From contig NZ_MUNX01000071.1 in assembly GCF_002001005.1 (NCBI RefSeq), positions 1 through 64,000 of the forward strand: 64,000 nt of DNA, in the 5' to 3' direction. Position numbers and translations under genes: made by a program. How positions within the stretch are numbered: position 1 is the stretch's first letter; each line of letters opens with the position of its first letter. This stretch comes from Flavobacterium sp. A45. GTDB lineage: Bacteria; Bacteroidota; Bacteroidia; Flavobacteriales; Flavobacteriaceae. Positions 30,708-36,709 of this stretch are shown piece after piece. Under the pieces are notes generated by a model. The model had not been told where the DNA came from and searched no databases. It saw only the letters and a program-made list of their open reading frames with translations.

Positions 30708-31361
30708 CTAAAGTACTTTTACAAATAAATTACTTGCAATTTTATTGGAAATAGTAAATTCTGTTCCATTTACTTTTATTTTTAGCGATAAGTCAAAGGT
30801 TTCTTTTGTCACCACTTCGATTTTTGTTCCCAACCCGATTTGCTGTTTATCAAGATATTTCAGGAAATCCGAAGAATTGTCTTTTACCCCAACACATATC
30901 CCAAATTGATTTGCCGATAACTCAGCCAATAATTGCTTTTCTACAGTAATCATTCTCCCTTGCGCATCTGGTATGGGGTCGCCATGAGGATCCTCAGTAG
31001 GATTCCCAAGAAAATCATCGAGTTTATTGATAAGTTTTTCAGATTTGATATGCTCAAGTTGTTCGGCAATATCGTGAACTTCATCCCAAGAAAAATCAAG
31101 TTTTTCCACTAAAAACACTTCCCATAAACGATGCTTTCTCACAATCATTTTGGCAGCATGTTTTCCGTTTTCAGTTAATGAAACTCCTTGGTATTTTTTA
31201 TAATGAACCAAATCTTTATCGGCCAGTTTTTTCAGCATATCCGTTACAGAGGAAGCTTTGGTTTCCATCATTTCGGCAATAGCATTGGTACTTACTTCAC
31301 TATCGAGACTAGCTGTAAGGTGATATATAGATTTAAGGTAATTTTCTTCAGAGAAAGTCAT
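30708..31361 (-). CDS. mntR: DtxR/MntR-family metal-dependent repressor
   Basis: 217 residues. Winged helix at 1-65 (SEENYLKSIYHLTA...STNAIAEMMETKASSVTDMLKKLADKDLVHYKKYQGVSLTENG), metal-binding dimerisation domain at about 66-130 (KHRLWEVFLVEKLDFSWDEVHDIAEQLEH, with the usual His/Glu ligands) and a C-terminal SH3/FeoA-like domain (about 145-217). Such proteins bind Mn2+ or Fe2+ and then repress uptake genes. It lies 103 bp downstream of mntH on the same strand, and a palindromic operator candidate lies at the mntH promoter, so control of mntH and the divergent receptor is likely. Confidence 0.9.
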   Translation of the reverse strand: MTFSEENYLKSIYHLTASLDSEVSTNAIAEMMETKASSVTDMLKKLADKDLVHYKKYQGVSLTENGKHAAKMIVRKHRLWEVFLVEKLDFSWDEVHDIAEQLEHIKSEKLINKLDDFLGNPTEDPHGDPIPDAQGRMITVEKQLLAELSANQFGICVGVKDNSSDFLKYLDKQQIGLGTKIEVVTKETFDLSLKIKVNGTEFTISNKIASNLFVKVL

Positions 31362-31464: not shown

Positions 31465-33336
31465 TTAATTTTTCACAATCAGCAAAGGTATGGAAATCTT
31501 GTGTCTCAAACGATCGACGGTAGTACCAAAGAGCAAATCTTTCATACCTGTATGGCCATGAGTTCCCATAATTAAAATATCAAAATCACCTTTGTTCACT
31601 AATTTCGGGATAACTTTATTTGGTTTGCCAAATCCTAACAATGTATTGACTTGAAATCCTTTTTCCTGAAACATCGTTTTATATTCCAGTAACAAGGTCT
31701 CATCAATTGTCGTTTCATGATCGTCAATCTGCTTCCCGTATATCATGGCTCCAACCGATTCAACCACATGAATTAAAGTATATTTTGCATCCTTACCTCC
31801 CATTTTAAAGGCGTAGTTAATTGCATTTTCGTCTGCAAATGAAAAATCGACAGTAATGGCAATGTTCTTGTTATCCTGAACGGAAGTTTCTGCAAATTTC
31901 AAATTCATATCATGTGGAGAGTGATTCTCAATATTCAATCTTGCTTTAGAAAAGAAAGGTTTTATAACAATATAGAGCAATAAAACCAAAAAGCTGATAG
32001 CCAGTGGCACAACCGTTAACCAAAGAATCATTGGATTTTCTGAAGTTTCGAGCCAACCTTGAATTTCTGAATAAACCAGTTTGGCATTTAGCGAAACAAT
32101 TATCACAGCAATTAACCACGCTGCGATTTGAGTCACTTTACCAATATGATAACCCTTCATTTTGGATTTATCACTTACAAAATGAATCAGCGGTATAATT
32201 GCAAAACCCAACTGCAAACTCAAAACAACTTGGCTAAGCACCAAAAGTTTCCCAGTAACACTTTCGCCATAAATAAGTATGACTATGACGGCTGGCACTA
32301 TGGCAATCAAACGGGTAACTATACGACGCACCCATGGCTGAATACGTAAATTCAAATATCCCTCCATTACAATTTGACCCGCCAATGTTCCCGTTATAGT
32401 AGAGCTTTGTCCAGCGGCAATCAAAGCCACCGCAAATAAAATAGAAGCCCATTTGGTACCCAGCAAAGGCTGCAGAAAACGATAAGCATCTTGGATTTCG
32501 GCAACTTCATGCATCCCGTTTTTATAAAATGTAGCTGCCGCCAAAATTAAAATAGCTGCATTTACAAAAAAAGCCAGATTTAAAGCTATTGTAGAATCAA
32601 TGAAATTATATTTTAAAGCCTGTTTAATTCCTGCATCGCTACGGCTGAATTTTCGGGTTTGTACCAATGACGAATGCAAATACAAATTATGAGGCATTAC
32701 GGTAGCTCCAATAATTCCGATTGCAATATAAAGAGCAGATTCAGTAGGCAAAGATGGAATTAAACCATAAAGGACTTTATCCATTTCAGGCTGGGCAAAT
32801 ATCATTTCAAAAACAAAGGACAGACCAACAATCATTACCAAAACGATAATAAAAGCTTCCATCTTTCGTATTCCTTTGTTAATCAAAAAGAGTAATAGAA
32901 AAGTATCCAAAACAGTAATCATAACAGCTTCAATCAACGGAATTCCAAACAATAAATTGATTCCTATGGCCATCCCTAAAACTTCGGCAAGATCACAAGC
33001 CGCAATGGCAATTTCGGCAAGAAAATAAAGGATATAATTAATGAACTTCGAATAAGTCTCTCGTGAAGCTTGCGCCAAATCGCGCTGAGTAACGATTCCA
33101 AGTCTTGCGCTCAAACTTTGCAACAACAAGGCCATTAAATTGCTCATTAATAATACCCACAACAAGGCATATCCAAACTGGCTTCCGCCCGCAATATCTG
33201 TCGCCCAATTACCTGGATCCATATACCCGACACTAACTAAATAAGCTGGGCCAAAAAAGGCTAATATTCTTTTGAAAACTGTTTTTTTATTTTGGGTTGC
33301 CACCGATTGGTGAACTTCTTCAAGCGATTTGGACAT
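31465..33336 (-). CDS. mntH: Nramp-family Mn2+/metal transporter fused to a universal stress protein domain
   Basis: 623 residues from the ATG at 33336 (MSKSLEEVHQ); a GTG/ATG-like start 7 codons upstream is possible. Residues about 20-460 are an Nramp transporter with eleven or so helices: the metal-site helix 1 motif D40-P-G-N43 (YMDPGNWATDIAGGSQ) and the helix 6 motif MPHNLYLHSS are intact. Residues about 485-623 are a UspA domain with the nucleotide-loop motif GTHGHTGMKDLLFGTT and a closing IPLLIVKN. The carrier imports Mn2+ (or Fe2+) with protons. The USP part may sense ATP or stress in the cytosol. This is an inference from the fusion. Confidence 0.93.
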   Translation of the reverse strand: MSKSLEEVHQSVATQNKKTVFKRILAFFGPAYLVSVGYMDPGNWATDIAGGSQFGYALLWVLLMSNLMALLLQSLSARLGIVTQRDLAQASRETYSKFINYILYFLAEIAIAACDLAEVLGMAIGINLLFGIPLIEAVMITVLDTFLLLFLINKGIRKMEAFIIVLVMIVGLSFVFEMIFAQPEMDKVLYGLIPSLPTESALYIAIGIIGATVMPHNLYLHSSLVQTRKFSRSDAGIKQALKYNFIDSTIALNLAFFVNAAILILAAATFYKNGMHEVAEIQDAYRFLQPLLGTKWASILFAVALIAAGQSSTITGTLAGQIVMEGYLNLRIQPWVRRIVTRLIAIVPAVIVILIYGESVTGKLLVLSQVVLSLQLGFAIIPLIHFVSDKSKMKGYHIGKVTQIAAWLIAVIIVSLNAKLVYSEIQGWLETSENPMILWLTVVPLAISFLVLLLYIVIKPFFSKARLNIENHSPHDMNLKFAETSVQDNKNIAITVDFSFADENAINYAFKMGGKDAKYTLIHVVESVGAMIYGKQIDDHETTIDETLLLEYKTMFQEKGFQVNTLLGFGKPNKVIPKLVNKGDFDILIMGTHGHTGMKDLLFGTTVDRLRHKISIPLLIVKN

Positions 33337-33354
33337 TTTTAATAGTTTAAAAAA

Positions 33355-33362
33355 CAAATATA
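33355..33362 (-). promoter_or_regulatory. -7 box (TATATTTG) of mntH
   Basis: Full TAnnTTTG match on the minus strand, 19 bp before the mntH ATG. Confidence 0.65.
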
Positions 33363-33363
33363 T

Positions 33364-33393
33364 AAAATAACTTTATGTTAATGAAATTATTTT
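33364..33393. promoter_or_regulatory. Candidate MntR operator, 30-bp palindrome between divergent promoters
   Basis: The arms AAAATAACTTTAT (33364-33376) and ATGAAATTATTTT (33381-33393) are reverse complements at 11 of 13 positions. The centre (33378.5) is within a base of the midpoint between the two -7 boxes (33355-33362 and 33396-33403), so a bound dimer would block both promoters. Confidence 0.55.
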
Positions 33394-33395
33394 TT

Positions 33396-33403
33396 TAGCT
33401 TTG
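33396..33403 (+). promoter_or_regulatory. -7 box (TAGCTTTG) of the TonB receptor gene
   Basis: Full TAnnTTTG match with the ATG at 33425, a leader of about 18-20 nt. A TTG codon at 33401 lies inside this box and is not the start. Confidence 0.65.
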
Positions 33404-33424
33404 TCTAAAATTTTATTTATAAAA

Positions 33425-35701
33425 ATGAAACATTTATTTTCAGTAATTACACTATTTACAATTCTGCTGACGTACGCACAAGAAAACATAGCTATAAGAG
33501 GAACTATTATGCACAAATCAACCCCCATTGAAAATGCAACAGTTGAGATAATAGGCACCAATTATAGCACACAAACGGACAGCAAAGGAATTTACTCCTT
33601 TCAAAATATTCCTAAAGGCAATTATAAAATACTAGTAACCGCCGTTGGTTACAAAACCCAACGAAAAAATATAGCTATACAGACATCAGCACAAACCCAA
33701 TTGGACTATGAACTACAAACAGACGAAAATGAACTTAATGAAGTGGTGGTTTCTGGAACTTTAAAAGCAGTAAAACGTCTGGAAAGCGCAGTCCCTGTTG
33801 AAGTATATACACCTGTATTTTTCAAGAAAAACCCAACACCAAGTATTTATGAAGCGTTACAAAATGTAAATGGAGTAAGGCCACAGCTCAACTGTGGAGT
33901 TTGCAATACTGGAGACATTCATATCAATGGGCTGGAAGGTCCGTATACATCTGTAATGATTGACGGAATGCCAATTGTCAGTAGTCTATCGACCGTTTAT
34001 GGATTGTCCGGGATTCCGAACTCATTGGTAGAACGAATCGAAATTGTAAAAGGTCCAGCCTCCTCTTTATATGGAAGTGAAGCCGTAGGTGGCTTAATCA
34101 ACATTATTACAAAAAATCCAATTAATGCACCAATATTTTCAGCTGATGTATTTACAACCACTTGGCTTGAAACCAATGTCGATTTGGGCATGAAATTTAA
34201 CATCAATAAAAAAGCATCTTCACTATTAGGACTAAATTATTACCTCTACGATCAAACAATTGACAATGACAATGATGCATTTACGGATGTTACGGCACAA
34301 AACAGGATTTCTCTTTTTAATAAATGGAATTTCAATCGTGCTCAAAACCGATTATTCACTGTGGCAGTCCGAGGCATGTACGAAGACCGTTGGGGTGGTG
34401 ATATCCGTTGGGAGAAAAAATACCGTGGAGGGGATGAAATCTACGGAGAGAGCATTTATACCAAAAGAGCGGAACTTATAGGAAGCTATCAATTGCCAAC
34501 AACCGAGAAACTTATGCTTTCCTTCTCTGGAACAATGCATTTTCAAGACAGCCGTTATGGAACAACCTCTTATATAGCCAATCAAAAAATTGGATTCCTG
34601 CAACTAACTTGGGACAAAAAAATTGGAAAAAACGATTTGCTTACAGGAATTGCGTCTCGTTACACGTATTATGATGACAACACAACATCTACTGCTATTT
34701 TAAACGAAAACAATCCCGAAAAAACATGGCTTCCAGGGATTTTTGCTCAAGATGAAATTTCTTTTAGCGAAAAGCACAAAATGTTATTCGGCTTACGCTA
34801 CGATTACAATTCCATCCACGGGAATATTTTTACGCCAAGATTTGCCTATAAATTAAAAATCAATGACGATAACATTCTCCGCTTTAATGCCGGAACCGGC
34901 TTTAGAGTTGTCAATTTATTCACAGAAGATCATGCGGCTTTAACAGGATCACGCCAAGTAGAGATTACCGAGAATTTAGACCCAGAAAAATCTGTAAATG
35001 CCAATTTGAATTATATCAAAAAAATCTATTTCTCAAATGGAACCTTTTTAGGCATTGAAACCACGGCTTTTTATACTCGTTTCAGCAACAAAATTGTATC
35101 AGATTATGAAACCGATCCTAACAAAATCATTTATAACAACATTAATGGTTATGCATTGAGCCAAGGGATAAGTTGTAATACAGACATCAATTTTACAAAT
35201 GGTTTAAAATTCATACTAGGTGCAACTTATATGGATGTCTCCAATGTAGAAAACGGCATAAAAACAAGACCGTATTTAACCGAGAATTTCACTGGAACTT
35301 GGAGTGCTTCCTATAAAATTAATTCGATAGATTTAGCAATTGACTACACCGGAAATGTTTACAGTCCAATGAAATTGCCATTGTTGAGCGAGACAGATCC
35401 CCGCAATCCTTACTCTCCTTGGTACAGTTTGCAAAACATACAATTTACTTATACAGGCTGGAAAAATTTTGAATTGTATGCCGGTATCAAAAACCTGCTT
35501 AACTTTACTCCAAAACAAAATAATCCTTTCTTGATTTCCAGAATCGAAGATCCGTTTGACAAAAATGTACAATATGATACAAATGGAAAAGTGTTGGTAA
35601 CTCCAGACAATCCTTATGGCTTGACTTTTGACACCACTTATGTTTATGGCCCAAATCAGGGAATCAGGGGATTCTTTGGACTGCGTTATAATTTATTTTA
35701 A
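33425..35701 (+). CDS. TonB-dependent outer-membrane receptor
   Basis: 758 residues from the ATG at 33425. Signal peptide (MKHLFSVITLFTILLTYAQ), a carboxypeptidase-like beta domain (about 20-105, IRGTIMHKSTPIENATVEI), a plug (about 115-230) with INGLEGPYTSVMIDGMPIV and VEIVKGPASSLYGSEAVGGLINIITK, then a 22-strand barrel ending in GLRYNLF. The plug carries a C157-G-V-C160 pair just before the INGL motif. Imports a ligand with TonB energy. Its divergent pairing with mntH and a possible shared operator point to manganese or another metal. A haem or siderophore ligand cannot be excluded. The thioredoxin gene starts 1 bp after its stop. Confidence 0.93.
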   Translation: MKHLFSVITLFTILLTYAQENIAIRGTIMHKSTPIENATVEIIGTNYSTQTDSKGIYSFQNIPKGNYKILVTAVGYKTQRKNIAIQTSAQTQLDYELQTDENELNEVVVSGTLKAVKRLESAVPVEVYTPVFFKKNPTPSIYEALQNVNGVRPQLNCGVCNTGDIHINGLEGPYTSVMIDGMPIVSSLSTVYGLSGIPNSLVERIEIVKGPASSLYGSEAVGGLINIITKNPINAPIFSADVFTTTWLETNVDLGMKFNINKKASSLLGLNYYLYDQTIDNDNDAFTDVTAQNRISLFNKWNFNRAQNRLFTVAVRGMYEDRWGGDIRWEKKYRGGDEIYGESIYTKRAELIGSYQLPTTEKLMLSFSGTMHFQDSRYGTTSYIANQKIGFLQLTWDKKIGKNDLLTGIASRYTYYDDNTTSTAILNENNPEKTWLPGIFAQDEISFSEKHKMLFGLRYDYNSIHGNIFTPRFAYKLKINDDNILRFNAGTGFRVVNLFTEDHAALTGSRQVEITENLDPEKSVNANLNYIKKIYFSNGTFLGIETTAFYTRFSNKIVSDYETDPNKIIYNNINGYALSQGISCNTDINFTNGLKFILGATYMDVSNVENGIKTRPYLTENFTGTWSASYKINSIDLAIDYTGNVYSPMKLPLLSETDPRNPYSPWYSLQNIQFTYTGWKNFELYAGIKNLLNFTPKQNNPFLISRIEDPFDKNVQYDTNGKVLVTPDNPYGLTFDTTYVYGPNQGIRGFFGLRYNLF

Positions 35702-35702
35702 A

Positions 35703-36167
35703 ATGAAAAAAAGGCTTTACATACTATTGATTTTCTTTTGGGTGATTCCATCTGGTTTTGCCCAATTGAAAACCTATTCTTTTGTAGAAGCAGAAAAATT
35801 ATCCAAAGAAAATCCGAAACCATTTGTCGTTTTTATACATACGACTTGGTGCAATTACTGCAAAATGATGGAGAATTCGACTTTCAAAAACCCTGAAATC
35901 ATTACCCTTTTAAACGATAATTACTACTTCATTTCATTGGATGCCGAAAACAAAGAAGACATTTATTTCAATAATCATAAGTTCTCATTTAAGCCAAATG
36001 GGCAAAACACTGGAATTCATGAACTGGCAACGGCATTGGCAACCATTAATTCCCAAGTGGTTTATCCAACGATTACTATTCTACAATCTGATCTTTCAAT
36101 CGTATTCCAAAAGCATTCTTTTCTAAACAGCAAGCAGTTACTAACTATTCTTGAAAAGAGAAAATAA
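35703..36167 (+). CDS. Secreted thioredoxin-like protein
   Basis: 154 residues from the ATG at 35703 (MKKRLYILLIFFWVIPSGFAQ, a signal peptide). An earlier in-frame ATG lies inside the receptor gene. The thioredoxin motif is W49-C50-N-Y-C53 (FIHTTWCNYCKMMENSTF). The cis-Pro is in VVYPTITIL. Periplasmic thiol-disulphide exchange is likely, perhaps on the Cys pair of the receptor plug, which is translated just before. It shares a transcript with the receptor (stop and start are separated by one base). Confidence 0.9.
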   Translation: MKKRLYILLIFFWVIPSGFAQLKTYSFVEAEKLSKENPKPFVVFIHTTWCNYCKMMENSTFKNPEIITLLNDNYYFISLDAENKEDIYFNNHKFSFKPNGQNTGIHELATALATINSQVVYPTITILQSDLSIVFQKHSFLNSKQLLTILEKRK

Positions 36168-36298: not shown

Positions 36299-36709
36299 AT
36301 GTATCCAGAAGAAATGGTAAAACCAATGCAAGCTGAATTAACATCTGCTGGTTTTCAAGAATTACATACTGCCGATGCTGTAGAAAGCGCAATAAAATCT
36401 GCAGGAACAACACTTGTAGTAGTAAACTCTGTTTGTGGTTGCGCTGCAAGAAATGCACGGCCGGGAGCCAAAATGAGTTTGGACAATGCAAAAAAACCAT
36501 CTAATCTAGTAACTGTTTTTGCAGGTGTAGATCGCGAAGCGGTAGAAGCTGCAAGAGGATTTATGTTTCCATTCCCTCCATCTTCTCCAAGTATTGCCTT
36601 GTTCAAAGACGGTGAATTGGTTCACATGTTAGAGCGTCACCACATTGAAGGACGTCCAGCAGAAACTATTGCAGAAAACTTAAAAGATGCTTTCAACGAG
36701 TATTGTTAA
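36299..36709 (+). CDS. BrxA/BrxB-family bacilliredoxin
   Basis: 136 residues. Thioredoxin-fold protein of the YphP/YqiW family with the characteristic C46-G-C48 motif (VNSVCGCAARNARPGA) in place of CxxC. In Firmicutes, family members remove bacillithiol from oxidised protein cysteines. Whether this organism makes bacillithiol is not shown in this window. It has its own promoter and terminator and is a single-gene unit next to the thioredoxin gene. Confidence 0.9.
   Translation: MYPEEMVKPMQAELTSAGFQELHTADAVESAIKSAGTTLVVVNSVCGCAARNARPGAKMSLDNAKKPSNLVTVFAGVDREAVEAARGFMFPFPPSSPSIALFKDGELVHMLERHHIEGRPAETIAENLKDAFNEYC

What the first reader, a model, noticed from the sequence alone, without database searches (positions are those of the whole stretch)
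33337..33424. Palindrome centred between the divergent mntH and TonB-receptor promoters
Two -7 boxes face away from each other (33355-33362 and 33396-33403). Between them lies a 30-bp imperfect palindrome with 11 of 13 paired positions, whose centre coincides within a base with the midpoint of the two boxes. A DtxR/MntR-type gene is in the same cluster. This is what a shared operator for a metal regulon looks like.
Basis: partly seen in the sequence, partly recalled or inferred. Interest (0 to 1): 0.75.

Follow-up and report, generated by a model that had tools for sequence, protein, structure and literature searches.

The report
Shared MntR operator beside the palindrome
Between a manganese-importer gene and an outer-membrane receptor gene of a Flavobacterium lies a short, widely conserved DNA sign that the metal sensor MntR probably reads to switch both genes; it sits about 23 bases away from the palindrome first pointed out, which is not conserved.

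Summary
The conserved element is TTAG-N6-CTAA at 33395-33408. It overlaps the -7 box of the TonB-dependent receptor (TBDR) gene and lies upstream of the mntH promoter. It precedes the TBDR in 78 of 78 assessable loci, among them 49 where mntH is more than 300 bp away. It precedes mntR in 28 of 29 family loci (0.27 expected). Of 30 fetched sites of a family-wide scan, all 14 outside ORFs adjoin mntR, a TBDR or a third target; none of the 16 inside ORFs does. Two genomes without a found mntR keep mntH but lack the site. The third target is a di-haem oxidoreductase/Rieske operon (12 of 12 orthologues). The geometry equals a DtxR/IdeR half-site. Best reading: Mn(II)-loaded MntR binds here, represses the TBDR by covering its -7 box and restrains mntH from beside its -33 region. 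No binding data exist; ten paper searches showed no earlier description.

The parts
33395..33408 (.). Predicted MntR operator TTAGCTTTGTCTAA (TTAG-N6-CTAA; 16-mer TTTAG-N6-CTAAA at 33394-33409), overlapping the TBDR -7 box
   Evidence: Present in 16 of 16 distinct divergent loci, upstream of the TBDR in 78 of 78 assessable loci, of mntH in 72 of 73 distinct upstreams where mntR is not in front, of mntR in 28 of 29 family loci
33396..33403 (+). -7 box TAGCTTTG (TANNTTTG) of the TBDR promoter, embedded in the operator; predicted start of transcription about 33408
   Evidence: Sequence; in register inside the site in 75 of 84 distinct TBDR upstreams and 3 of 15; box position -12 to -5 from a passage of PMC9723704
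33355..33362 (-). -7 box TATATTTG of the mntH promoter; predicted start about 33350, so the operator lies at about -45 to -58
   Evidence: A TANNTTTG box 20-33 bp from the site in 72 of 73 distinct mntH upstreams chosen by protein, 28-33 bp in 70; CAAAT[AG]TA plus the site in 88 of 95 before merging
33364..33393 (.).
   Evidence: 11/13 paired but near chance and not conserved
31465..33336 (-). mntH: Nramp Mn(II)/Fe(II) importer with a C-terminal universal-stress domain
   Evidence: NF001923 600 bits (cut-off 430), PF01566, PF00582
30708..31361 (-). mntR: DtxR-family metalloregulator with a FeoA domain, downstream of mntH
   Evidence: PF01325, PF02742, PF04023; NCBIfam MntR models match below their cut-offs; PDB relatives ScaR, SloR, IdeR, MntR
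33425..35701 (+). TonB-dependent receptor with a CGVC motif in the plug
   Evidence: PF07715, PF00593, PF13715; both cysteines kept in 124 of 124 aligned tblastn hits among the loci held then, duplicates not merged
35703..36167 (+). Thioredoxin-like protein with WCNYC and, by eye, a signal-like N-terminus, next to the TBDR
   Evidence: PF03190, PF13899, PF13098; a homologue follows the TBDR within 1.5 kb in 70 of 80 loci

Best explanation
33395-33408 is the operator of the MntR-type regulator encoded by mntR (30708-31361). When cytoplasmic Mn(II) is sufficient, a metal-loaded MntR dimer binds TTAG-N6-CTAA. Towards the TBDR it covers the -7 box (about -13 to +1) and shuts the promoter. Towards mntH(-mntR) it sits just upstream of the -33 region (about -45 to -58) and probably hinders sigma or alpha contacts, giving weaker repression and autoregulation. 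When Mn(II) falls, both promoters open and the cell makes the outer-membrane receptor with its thioredoxin-like partner and the inner-membrane importer together. The same operator controls a di-haem oxidoreductase/Rieske/porin-like operon elsewhere in the genome. Shown by comparison: the site, its targets, its link to mntR. Inferred: binding, metal, sign of regulation, number of dimers, and co-transcription of mntH with mntR.
For: It precedes the TBDR in 78 of 78 assessable loci of the 80 fetched (the best 80 of 190 relatives) in every gene context: mntH adjacent 10, mntH more than 300 bp away 49, mntR adjacent 11, other 8. It precedes mntH in 17 of 17 distinct upstreams next to a TBDR and 55 of 56 not next to one; the exception, L023, has no mntR hit in its genome; the 8 loci with mntR in front of mntH have none before mntH. 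It precedes mntR in 28 of 29 family loci (the best 29 besides the own of 134 mntR hits) against 0.265 expected from dinucleotide shuffles; background 3 sites in 75,750 bp. Pattern scans: TTTTTAGNTTTGNCTAAA hits 47 of 61 Flavobacterium genomes, 52 sites against 5 for the reversed control; 29 of 30 fetched loci are at mntH, mntR or a TBDR relative. In 199 family genomes TTTAGNTTTGNCTAAA gives 104 sites against 62 for the reversed control, by my sum of the table; 34 of the 104 lie within 250 bp of an mntR start, roughly 0.009 expected. Of 30 fetched loci all 14 outside ORFs carry a regulon gene and none of the 16 inside ORFs does. Link to MntR: the 18-mer and mntR co-occur in the genus (46 both, 1 site only, 9 mntR only, 5 neither; p=0.002). 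In the family, sites with a pyrimidine before CTAAA co-occur with mntR (p=5e-4) and those with a purine do not, p=0.51; kinship was not corrected for. Two genomes without an mntR hit keep mntH but lack the site, and none of six such genomes has a TBDR match at 1e-60. [quoted passage not shown] Metal: Glu100-Glu103-His104 as in MntR, not Cys as in DtxR (ligands from passages of PMC4805248).
Against: No binding or expression data. For mntH and mntR the site lies upstream of the -33 region, where an activator or a neutral site is also conceivable; a TTG at -33 spacing is seen in 52 of 72 mntH promoters but in only 7 of 26 mntR promoters. Asn7 replaces the usual Asp ligand in 74 of 81 aligned MntR hits. 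The window's own site pairs only 4 of 7 positions, and the bare 16-mer TTTAG-N6-CTAAA occurs 21 times in this genome, so the case rests on comparison. The embedded -7 box is a rule-10 loci (75 of 84) but not in the loci of other genera (3 of 15). One genome has the site between mntH and an unrelated gene (L150). One of 47 genus genomes with the 18-mer (G043, purine type) and 12 of 67 family genomes with the pyrimidine-type site have no mntR hit at 1e-60; 9 of 55 genus genomes with mntR lack the 18-mer.
Confidence: 0.88

Rival explanations
1. The reader's 30-bp palindrome (33364-33393) is the operator, or a second operator beside TTAG-N6-CTAA.
For: Centred between the boxes; 11/13; 2.2% chance if confined to the spacer. 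Two relatives also reach 11/13 and one 10/13; the mean register score over 16 loci is above that of shuffled spacers.
Against: 38% chance over the 88 bp; 6-9 of 13 in 12 of 16 distinct divergent loci. That A-rich left and T-rich right sides feign symmetry is my inference.
Confidence: 0.04
2. Another metal regulator (Fur, Zur) or an Fe(II)-type DtxR protein reads TTAG-N6-CTAA; mntR is only a neighbour.
For: The half-site is that of IdeR/DtxR; a Fur-family gene, read by eye from the sequence, lies next to mntH in L052.
Against: Site and mntR co-occur in genus and family; two genomes without an mntR hit lack the site before mntH; the site precedes mntR itself in 28 of 29 loci; Glu100 rather than Cys.
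Confidence: 0.06
3. The conserved stretch is only the TBDR's -7 box with flanking A/T tracts, not an operator.
For: TAGNTTTG is in register in 75 of 84 distinct TBDR sites.
Against: In loci chosen by protein only, mntH upstreams not next to the TBDR keep the site (55 of 56), mostly without the box (4 of 55 embedded), and it is more symmetric there (mean 5.4 of 7 pairs) than next to the TBDR (4.3). The CTAA half lies outside the box and is present throughout.
Confidence: 0.02

Closest known systems
[quoted passage not shown]
   Same: TTAG...CTAA ends, 14-bp length, overlap of the -10-type element at a presumably repressed promoter
   Different: Only one half-site (room for one dimer, inferred); positions 5 and 10 are loose; Mn-type ligands; Bacteroidota promoter with TANNTTTG
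Stenotrophomonas maltophilia MntR module: mntH, mntP, CQNC-type TBDR plus periplasmic thioredoxin-fold protein (PMC13217887; passages and section 3.7 seen)
   Same: Predicted MntR boxes at mntH and at a TBDR with CXXC in the plug, followed by a thioredoxin-like gene
   Different: Here CGVC and WCNYC rather than CQNC and CAPC; TBDR divergent from mntH on one shared site; a different phylum. Some Flavobacteriaceae TBDR relatives at the site do carry CQNC (L138, L205, L212, L220)
Porphyromonas gingivalis PgMntR (PMC4805248; start of abstract and passages seen)
   Same: Bacteroidota MntR with FeoA domain; binds the promoter region of its Mn transporter operon
   Different: PgMntR has Cys108 and two FeoA domains and its transporter is FB2; the passages seen define no operator sequence

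Membership tests
MntR (Mn-responsive DtxR family) | DtxR-type DNA-binding and dimerisation domains | tested here: met
   PF01325 55.9 bits, PF02742 111.2 bits, both above cut-off
MntR (Mn-responsive DtxR family) | Glu at the site that is Cys in DtxR, with Glu-His of the primary site | tested here: met
   E100, E103, H104, invariant in 79-80 aligned hits; ligand roles
MntR (Mn-responsive DtxR family) | Asp ligand near the N-terminus (Asp8 of B. subtilis MntR) | tested here: not met
   Asn7 in the window and in 74 of 81 aligned hits; Asp in 7
MntR (Mn-responsive DtxR family) | Score above an NCBIfam MntR equivalog cut-off | tested here: not met
   NF047407 155.9 (cut-off 350), NF003025 64.6 (138), NF008273 49.9 (153): so called MntR-type here, not filed as an equivalog
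MntR (Mn-responsive DtxR family) | Mn(II)-dependent binding at the Mn importer promoter | not testable with these tools
   Needs a binding assay
DtxR-family half-site operator | TTAGG-N4-CCTAA geometry (14 bp) | tested here: met
   TTAG-N6-CTAA, 14 bp; the outer four bases of each half are fixed by my search pattern, positions 5 and 10 vary
DtxR-family half-site operator | Conserved at orthologous targets and enriched over chance | tested here: met
CQNC-TBDR/pTFP module of S. maltophilia | CQNC in the TBDR plug | tested here: not met
   The window has CGVC; CQNC only in other receptors at the same site
CQNC-TBDR/pTFP module of S. maltophilia | CAPC thioredoxin-fold protein next to the TBDR | tested here: not met
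   WCNYC; WCxxC in 70 of 70 aligned hits: works alike, not filed as a member

The most novel reading that the evidence does not exclude
The operator marks a three-part, redox-assisted metal uptake regulon of Flavobacteriaceae: a CXXC-plug TonB receptor with a thioredoxin-like partner, a di-haem/Rieske/porin-like operon, and Nramp import. One single-dimer MntR site serves two divergent promoters by two mechanisms, covering the -7 box on one side and acting from next to the -33 region on the other, perhaps with opposite sign.
Probability: 0.3. Interest if true: 0.7.

Novelty: new member of a known kind. Interest (0 to 1): 0.5.

Why it matters
It gives a sharp, testable operator and a small regulon for manganese control across Flavobacteriaceae; the passages I saw on the characterised Bacteroidota MntR defined no site. 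It points to a TonB receptor with a conserved plug CXXC as a likely outer-membrane manganese (or Mn/Fe) route and to an unexpected di-haem/Rieske operon as a third target. It also shows that a near-chance palindrome in A+T-rich DNA can stand beside the real site.

Tried and rejected
A conserved 21-codon ORF that I seemed to see downstream of the site in the F. johnsoniae group: I read it by eye in L052 as the antisense of the 3' end of a Fur-family gene; no tool was run on it. Bare TTTAG-N6-CTAAA over the own genome: 21 sites, fewer than its reversed control with 53, so the bare pattern alone carries no information. Four of those sites were looked at more closely: C116 is the di-haem operon, C89 and C43 lie inside ORFs, C154 lies behind an ORF with no target that I could tie in. 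For 15 others only ORF lists were printed and not followed up. The symmetric pattern TTTTAGNCNNGNCTAAA in 61 genomes: 18 of 22 distinct fetched places are at mntH or mntR, four are not; its reversed control has more matches (62, by my sum of the table) than the pattern (33), so that scan alone proves nothing. Sites with a purine before CTAAA look mostly like chance (1 of 30 near mntR). Literature: ten searches listed no paper that I could recognise as describing a Flavobacteriaceae or Bacteroidota MntR operator; of PMC4805248 I saw passages only; subscription journals are mostly not held.

Counting notes: one search's 95 mntH upstreams leave out L025 (contig end) and are not merged for identity; of the 7 without box or site, L023 has no mntR hit in its genome and six (L096, L098, L101, L103, L106, L110) have mntR in front of mntH. 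One search leaves out L045 and L091 (no gene start in the match). One search mixed in loci that had been chosen by the pattern itself, so its counts are not used; one search repeats them on loci chosen by protein only. G028 and G035 (no mntR hit, mntH present) could not be judged because the contig ends. The six genomes without mntR are 83-93% complete, so absence may be partly a gap. One search's script did not read L165 and L168; one search did, and both have the site. The gene opposite mntH in L150 was not identified (one search failed).

Full report
What is in the sequence. The window is from a Flavobacterium genome (nearest relatives; G000, 4.35 Mb). mntH (31465-33336, -) and a TonB-dependent receptor gene (TBDR, 33425-35701, +) diverge from an 88-bp intergenic region. 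Downstream of mntH lies a DtxR/MntR-type gene (30708-31361, -), downstream of the TBDR a thioredoxin-like gene. The palindrome is not remarkable for such A+T-rich DNA: 38% of dinucleotide shuffles of the region reach it; 2.2% if the search is confined to the 33 bases between the boxes.

What is conserved. I fetched 80 loci by the TBDR protein from genome contigs (the best 80 of 190 relatives) and 30 by mntH from the genus (the best 30 of 40). Reading the mntH upstreams side by side shows that the palindrome changes freely while TTAG-N6-CTAA stays. In 16 distinct regions with the same divergent order the site is present 16 times and the palindrome register scores 6-11 of 13, mean 8.9 against 6.7 for shuffled spacers. 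The site is found before the TBDR in 78 of 78 assessable loci: where mntH is adjacent (10), where mntH is more than 300 bp away (49), where mntR is the divergent neighbour (11), and in other contexts (8). mntH has the site in 17 of 17 distinct upstreams next to a TBDR and in 55 of 56 not next to one; the exception is L023, whose genome has no mntR hit. In 8 further loci mntR stands in front of mntH and mntH has no site; for five of these (L096, L098, L103, L106, L110) one search shows the site before mntR, for L234 and L238 one search does; L101 is cut off.

Chance and specificity. TTTTTAGNTTTGNCTAAA matches 47 of 61 Flavobacterium genomes with 52 sites, against 5 for the reversed pattern. Of 30 fetched loci 27 show a TBDR relative and two more mntH; one shows none (L142). 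Across 199 genomes of the family (198 genera) the 16-mer gives 104 sites, against 62 for the reversed pattern by my sum, so more than half may be chance; 34 of the 104 lie within 250 bp of an mntR start, roughly 0.009 expected. Of 30 fetched loci, the 14 sites outside ORFs of 100 aa or more all adjoin mntR, a TBDR relative or the di-haem gene, and none of the 16 inside ORFs does. Chosen by the mntR protein instead (the best 29 besides the own, of 134 hits), 28 of 29 family loci have TTAG-N6-CTAA within 250 bp of mntR; 0.265 were expected from shuffles and the background is 3 sites in 75,750 bp. The exception, L221, is a Flavobacterium with mntR behind mntH.

Link to the regulator. In the genus the 18-mer and mntR go together: 46 genomes with both, 1 with the site only, 9 with mntR only, 5 with neither (p=0.002). 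Across the family site and mntR co-occur when the base before CTAAA is a pyrimidine (55 both, 12 site only, 76 mntR only, 56 neither; p=5e-4) and not when it is a purine (15, 10, 116, 58; p=0.51). Kinship and genome size were not corrected for. Six of 61 genus genomes have no mntR hit. Of the four of these with mntH, two can be judged and both lack the site (G014, G026). None of the six has a TBDR match at 1e-60, while three of four control genomes do; the fourth control, G010, has mntR and the site but another gene opposite mntH (L150). The six are 83-93% complete, so this is supportive rather than proof.

Anatomy. The 14-bp site equals the spacing of the IdeR half-site, two CCTAA repeats around 4 bp, which binds one dimer; boxes of repressed IdeR genes overlap the start site or -10 region (passages of PMC10317159). 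With the flavobacterial -7 box at -12 to -5 (passage of PMC9723704), the site spans about -13 to +1 of the TBDR and -45 to -58 of mntH. In loci chosen by protein, a -7 box follows the site at 28-33 bp in 70 of 73 distinct mntH upstreams (20 bp in two more) and at 25-32 bp in 26 of 29 family mntR upstreams; a TTG at -33 spacing is seen in 52 of the 72 mntH promoters but only 7 of the 26 mntR promoters. So the site stands just upstream of the -33 position. TBDR sites embed TANNTTTG in register in 75 of 84 distinct upstreams but in only 3 of 15. mntH sites away from the TBDR rarely do (4 of 55) and are more symmetric, 5.4 of 7 pairs against 4.3 next to the TBDR. So in Flavobacterium the operator core appears to have been drawn towards the receptor's promoter: an inference from these counts.

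Regulon. In this genome a second site, TTTAGTTTTGTCTAAA, lies before a di-haem oxidoreductase gene (PF06537); its 14-mer begins 31 bp before the ATG. A Rieske protein (PF00355) and a porin-like gene follow (contig C116; the porin call is mine, Pfam gives nothing). The site precedes 12 of 12 orthologues at 65% identity or more (11 genomes of 150 searched) and 0 of 18 paralogues at 42-46%, and also a homologue in another genus (L201). The TBDR has CXXC in its plug in 124 of 124 aligned hits and a thioredoxin-like gene follows within 1.5 kb in 70 of 80 loci. This resembles the MntR-controlled CQNC-TBDR/pTFP pair of Stenotrophomonas maltophilia (PMC13217887; passages and section 3.7). Some family TBDR relatives at the site carry CQNC itself.

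The regulator. Glu100, Glu103 and His104 follow MntR rather than DtxR, but Asp8 of B. subtilis MntR is Asn here (74 of 81 aligned hits) and no NCBIfam MntR cut-off is reached. I call it MntR-type; Mn(II) as ligand is likely, not shown.

Verdict. A shared MntR operator very probably exists, but at 33395-33408. Binding, metal and sign of regulation remain to be tested.

Noticed in passing
L127 4516-7416 (G000:C116:20515-23415): Second predicted MntR site in the same genome, before a di-haem oxidoreductase, Rieske and porin-like operon; 12 of 12 orthologues have it, 18 of 18 paralogues lack it.
   Followed up: yes
window 33425-35701, CGVC at codons 157-160: CXXC in the TBDR plug in 124 of 124 aligned hits; some receptors at the same operator have CQNC as in Stenotrophomonas (L138, L205, L212, L220).
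   Followed up: partly
window 30708-31361, codon 7: The MntR-type protein has Asn where SloR and ScaR have Asp in the alignments; Asp occurs in 7 of 81 relatives (five Aquimarina loci and L198, L211).
   Followed up: partly
window 36299-36709: Bacilliredoxin (BrxA/BrxB family, TIGR04191) gene just beyond the thioredoxin-like gene.
   Followed up: no
L052 600-4020: In this locus (F. chilense) genes lie between mntH and the TBDR, read by eye as a Fur-family regulator, a small membrane protein, a GTPase of the metal-chaperone kind and a thioredoxin-reductase-like gene; each flank keeps its own MntR site.
   Followed up: partly
L091: A contig labelled Klebsiella pneumoniae MAG carries a Flavobacterium-like TBDR (87% identity): probably a mislabelled bin.
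   Followed up: no
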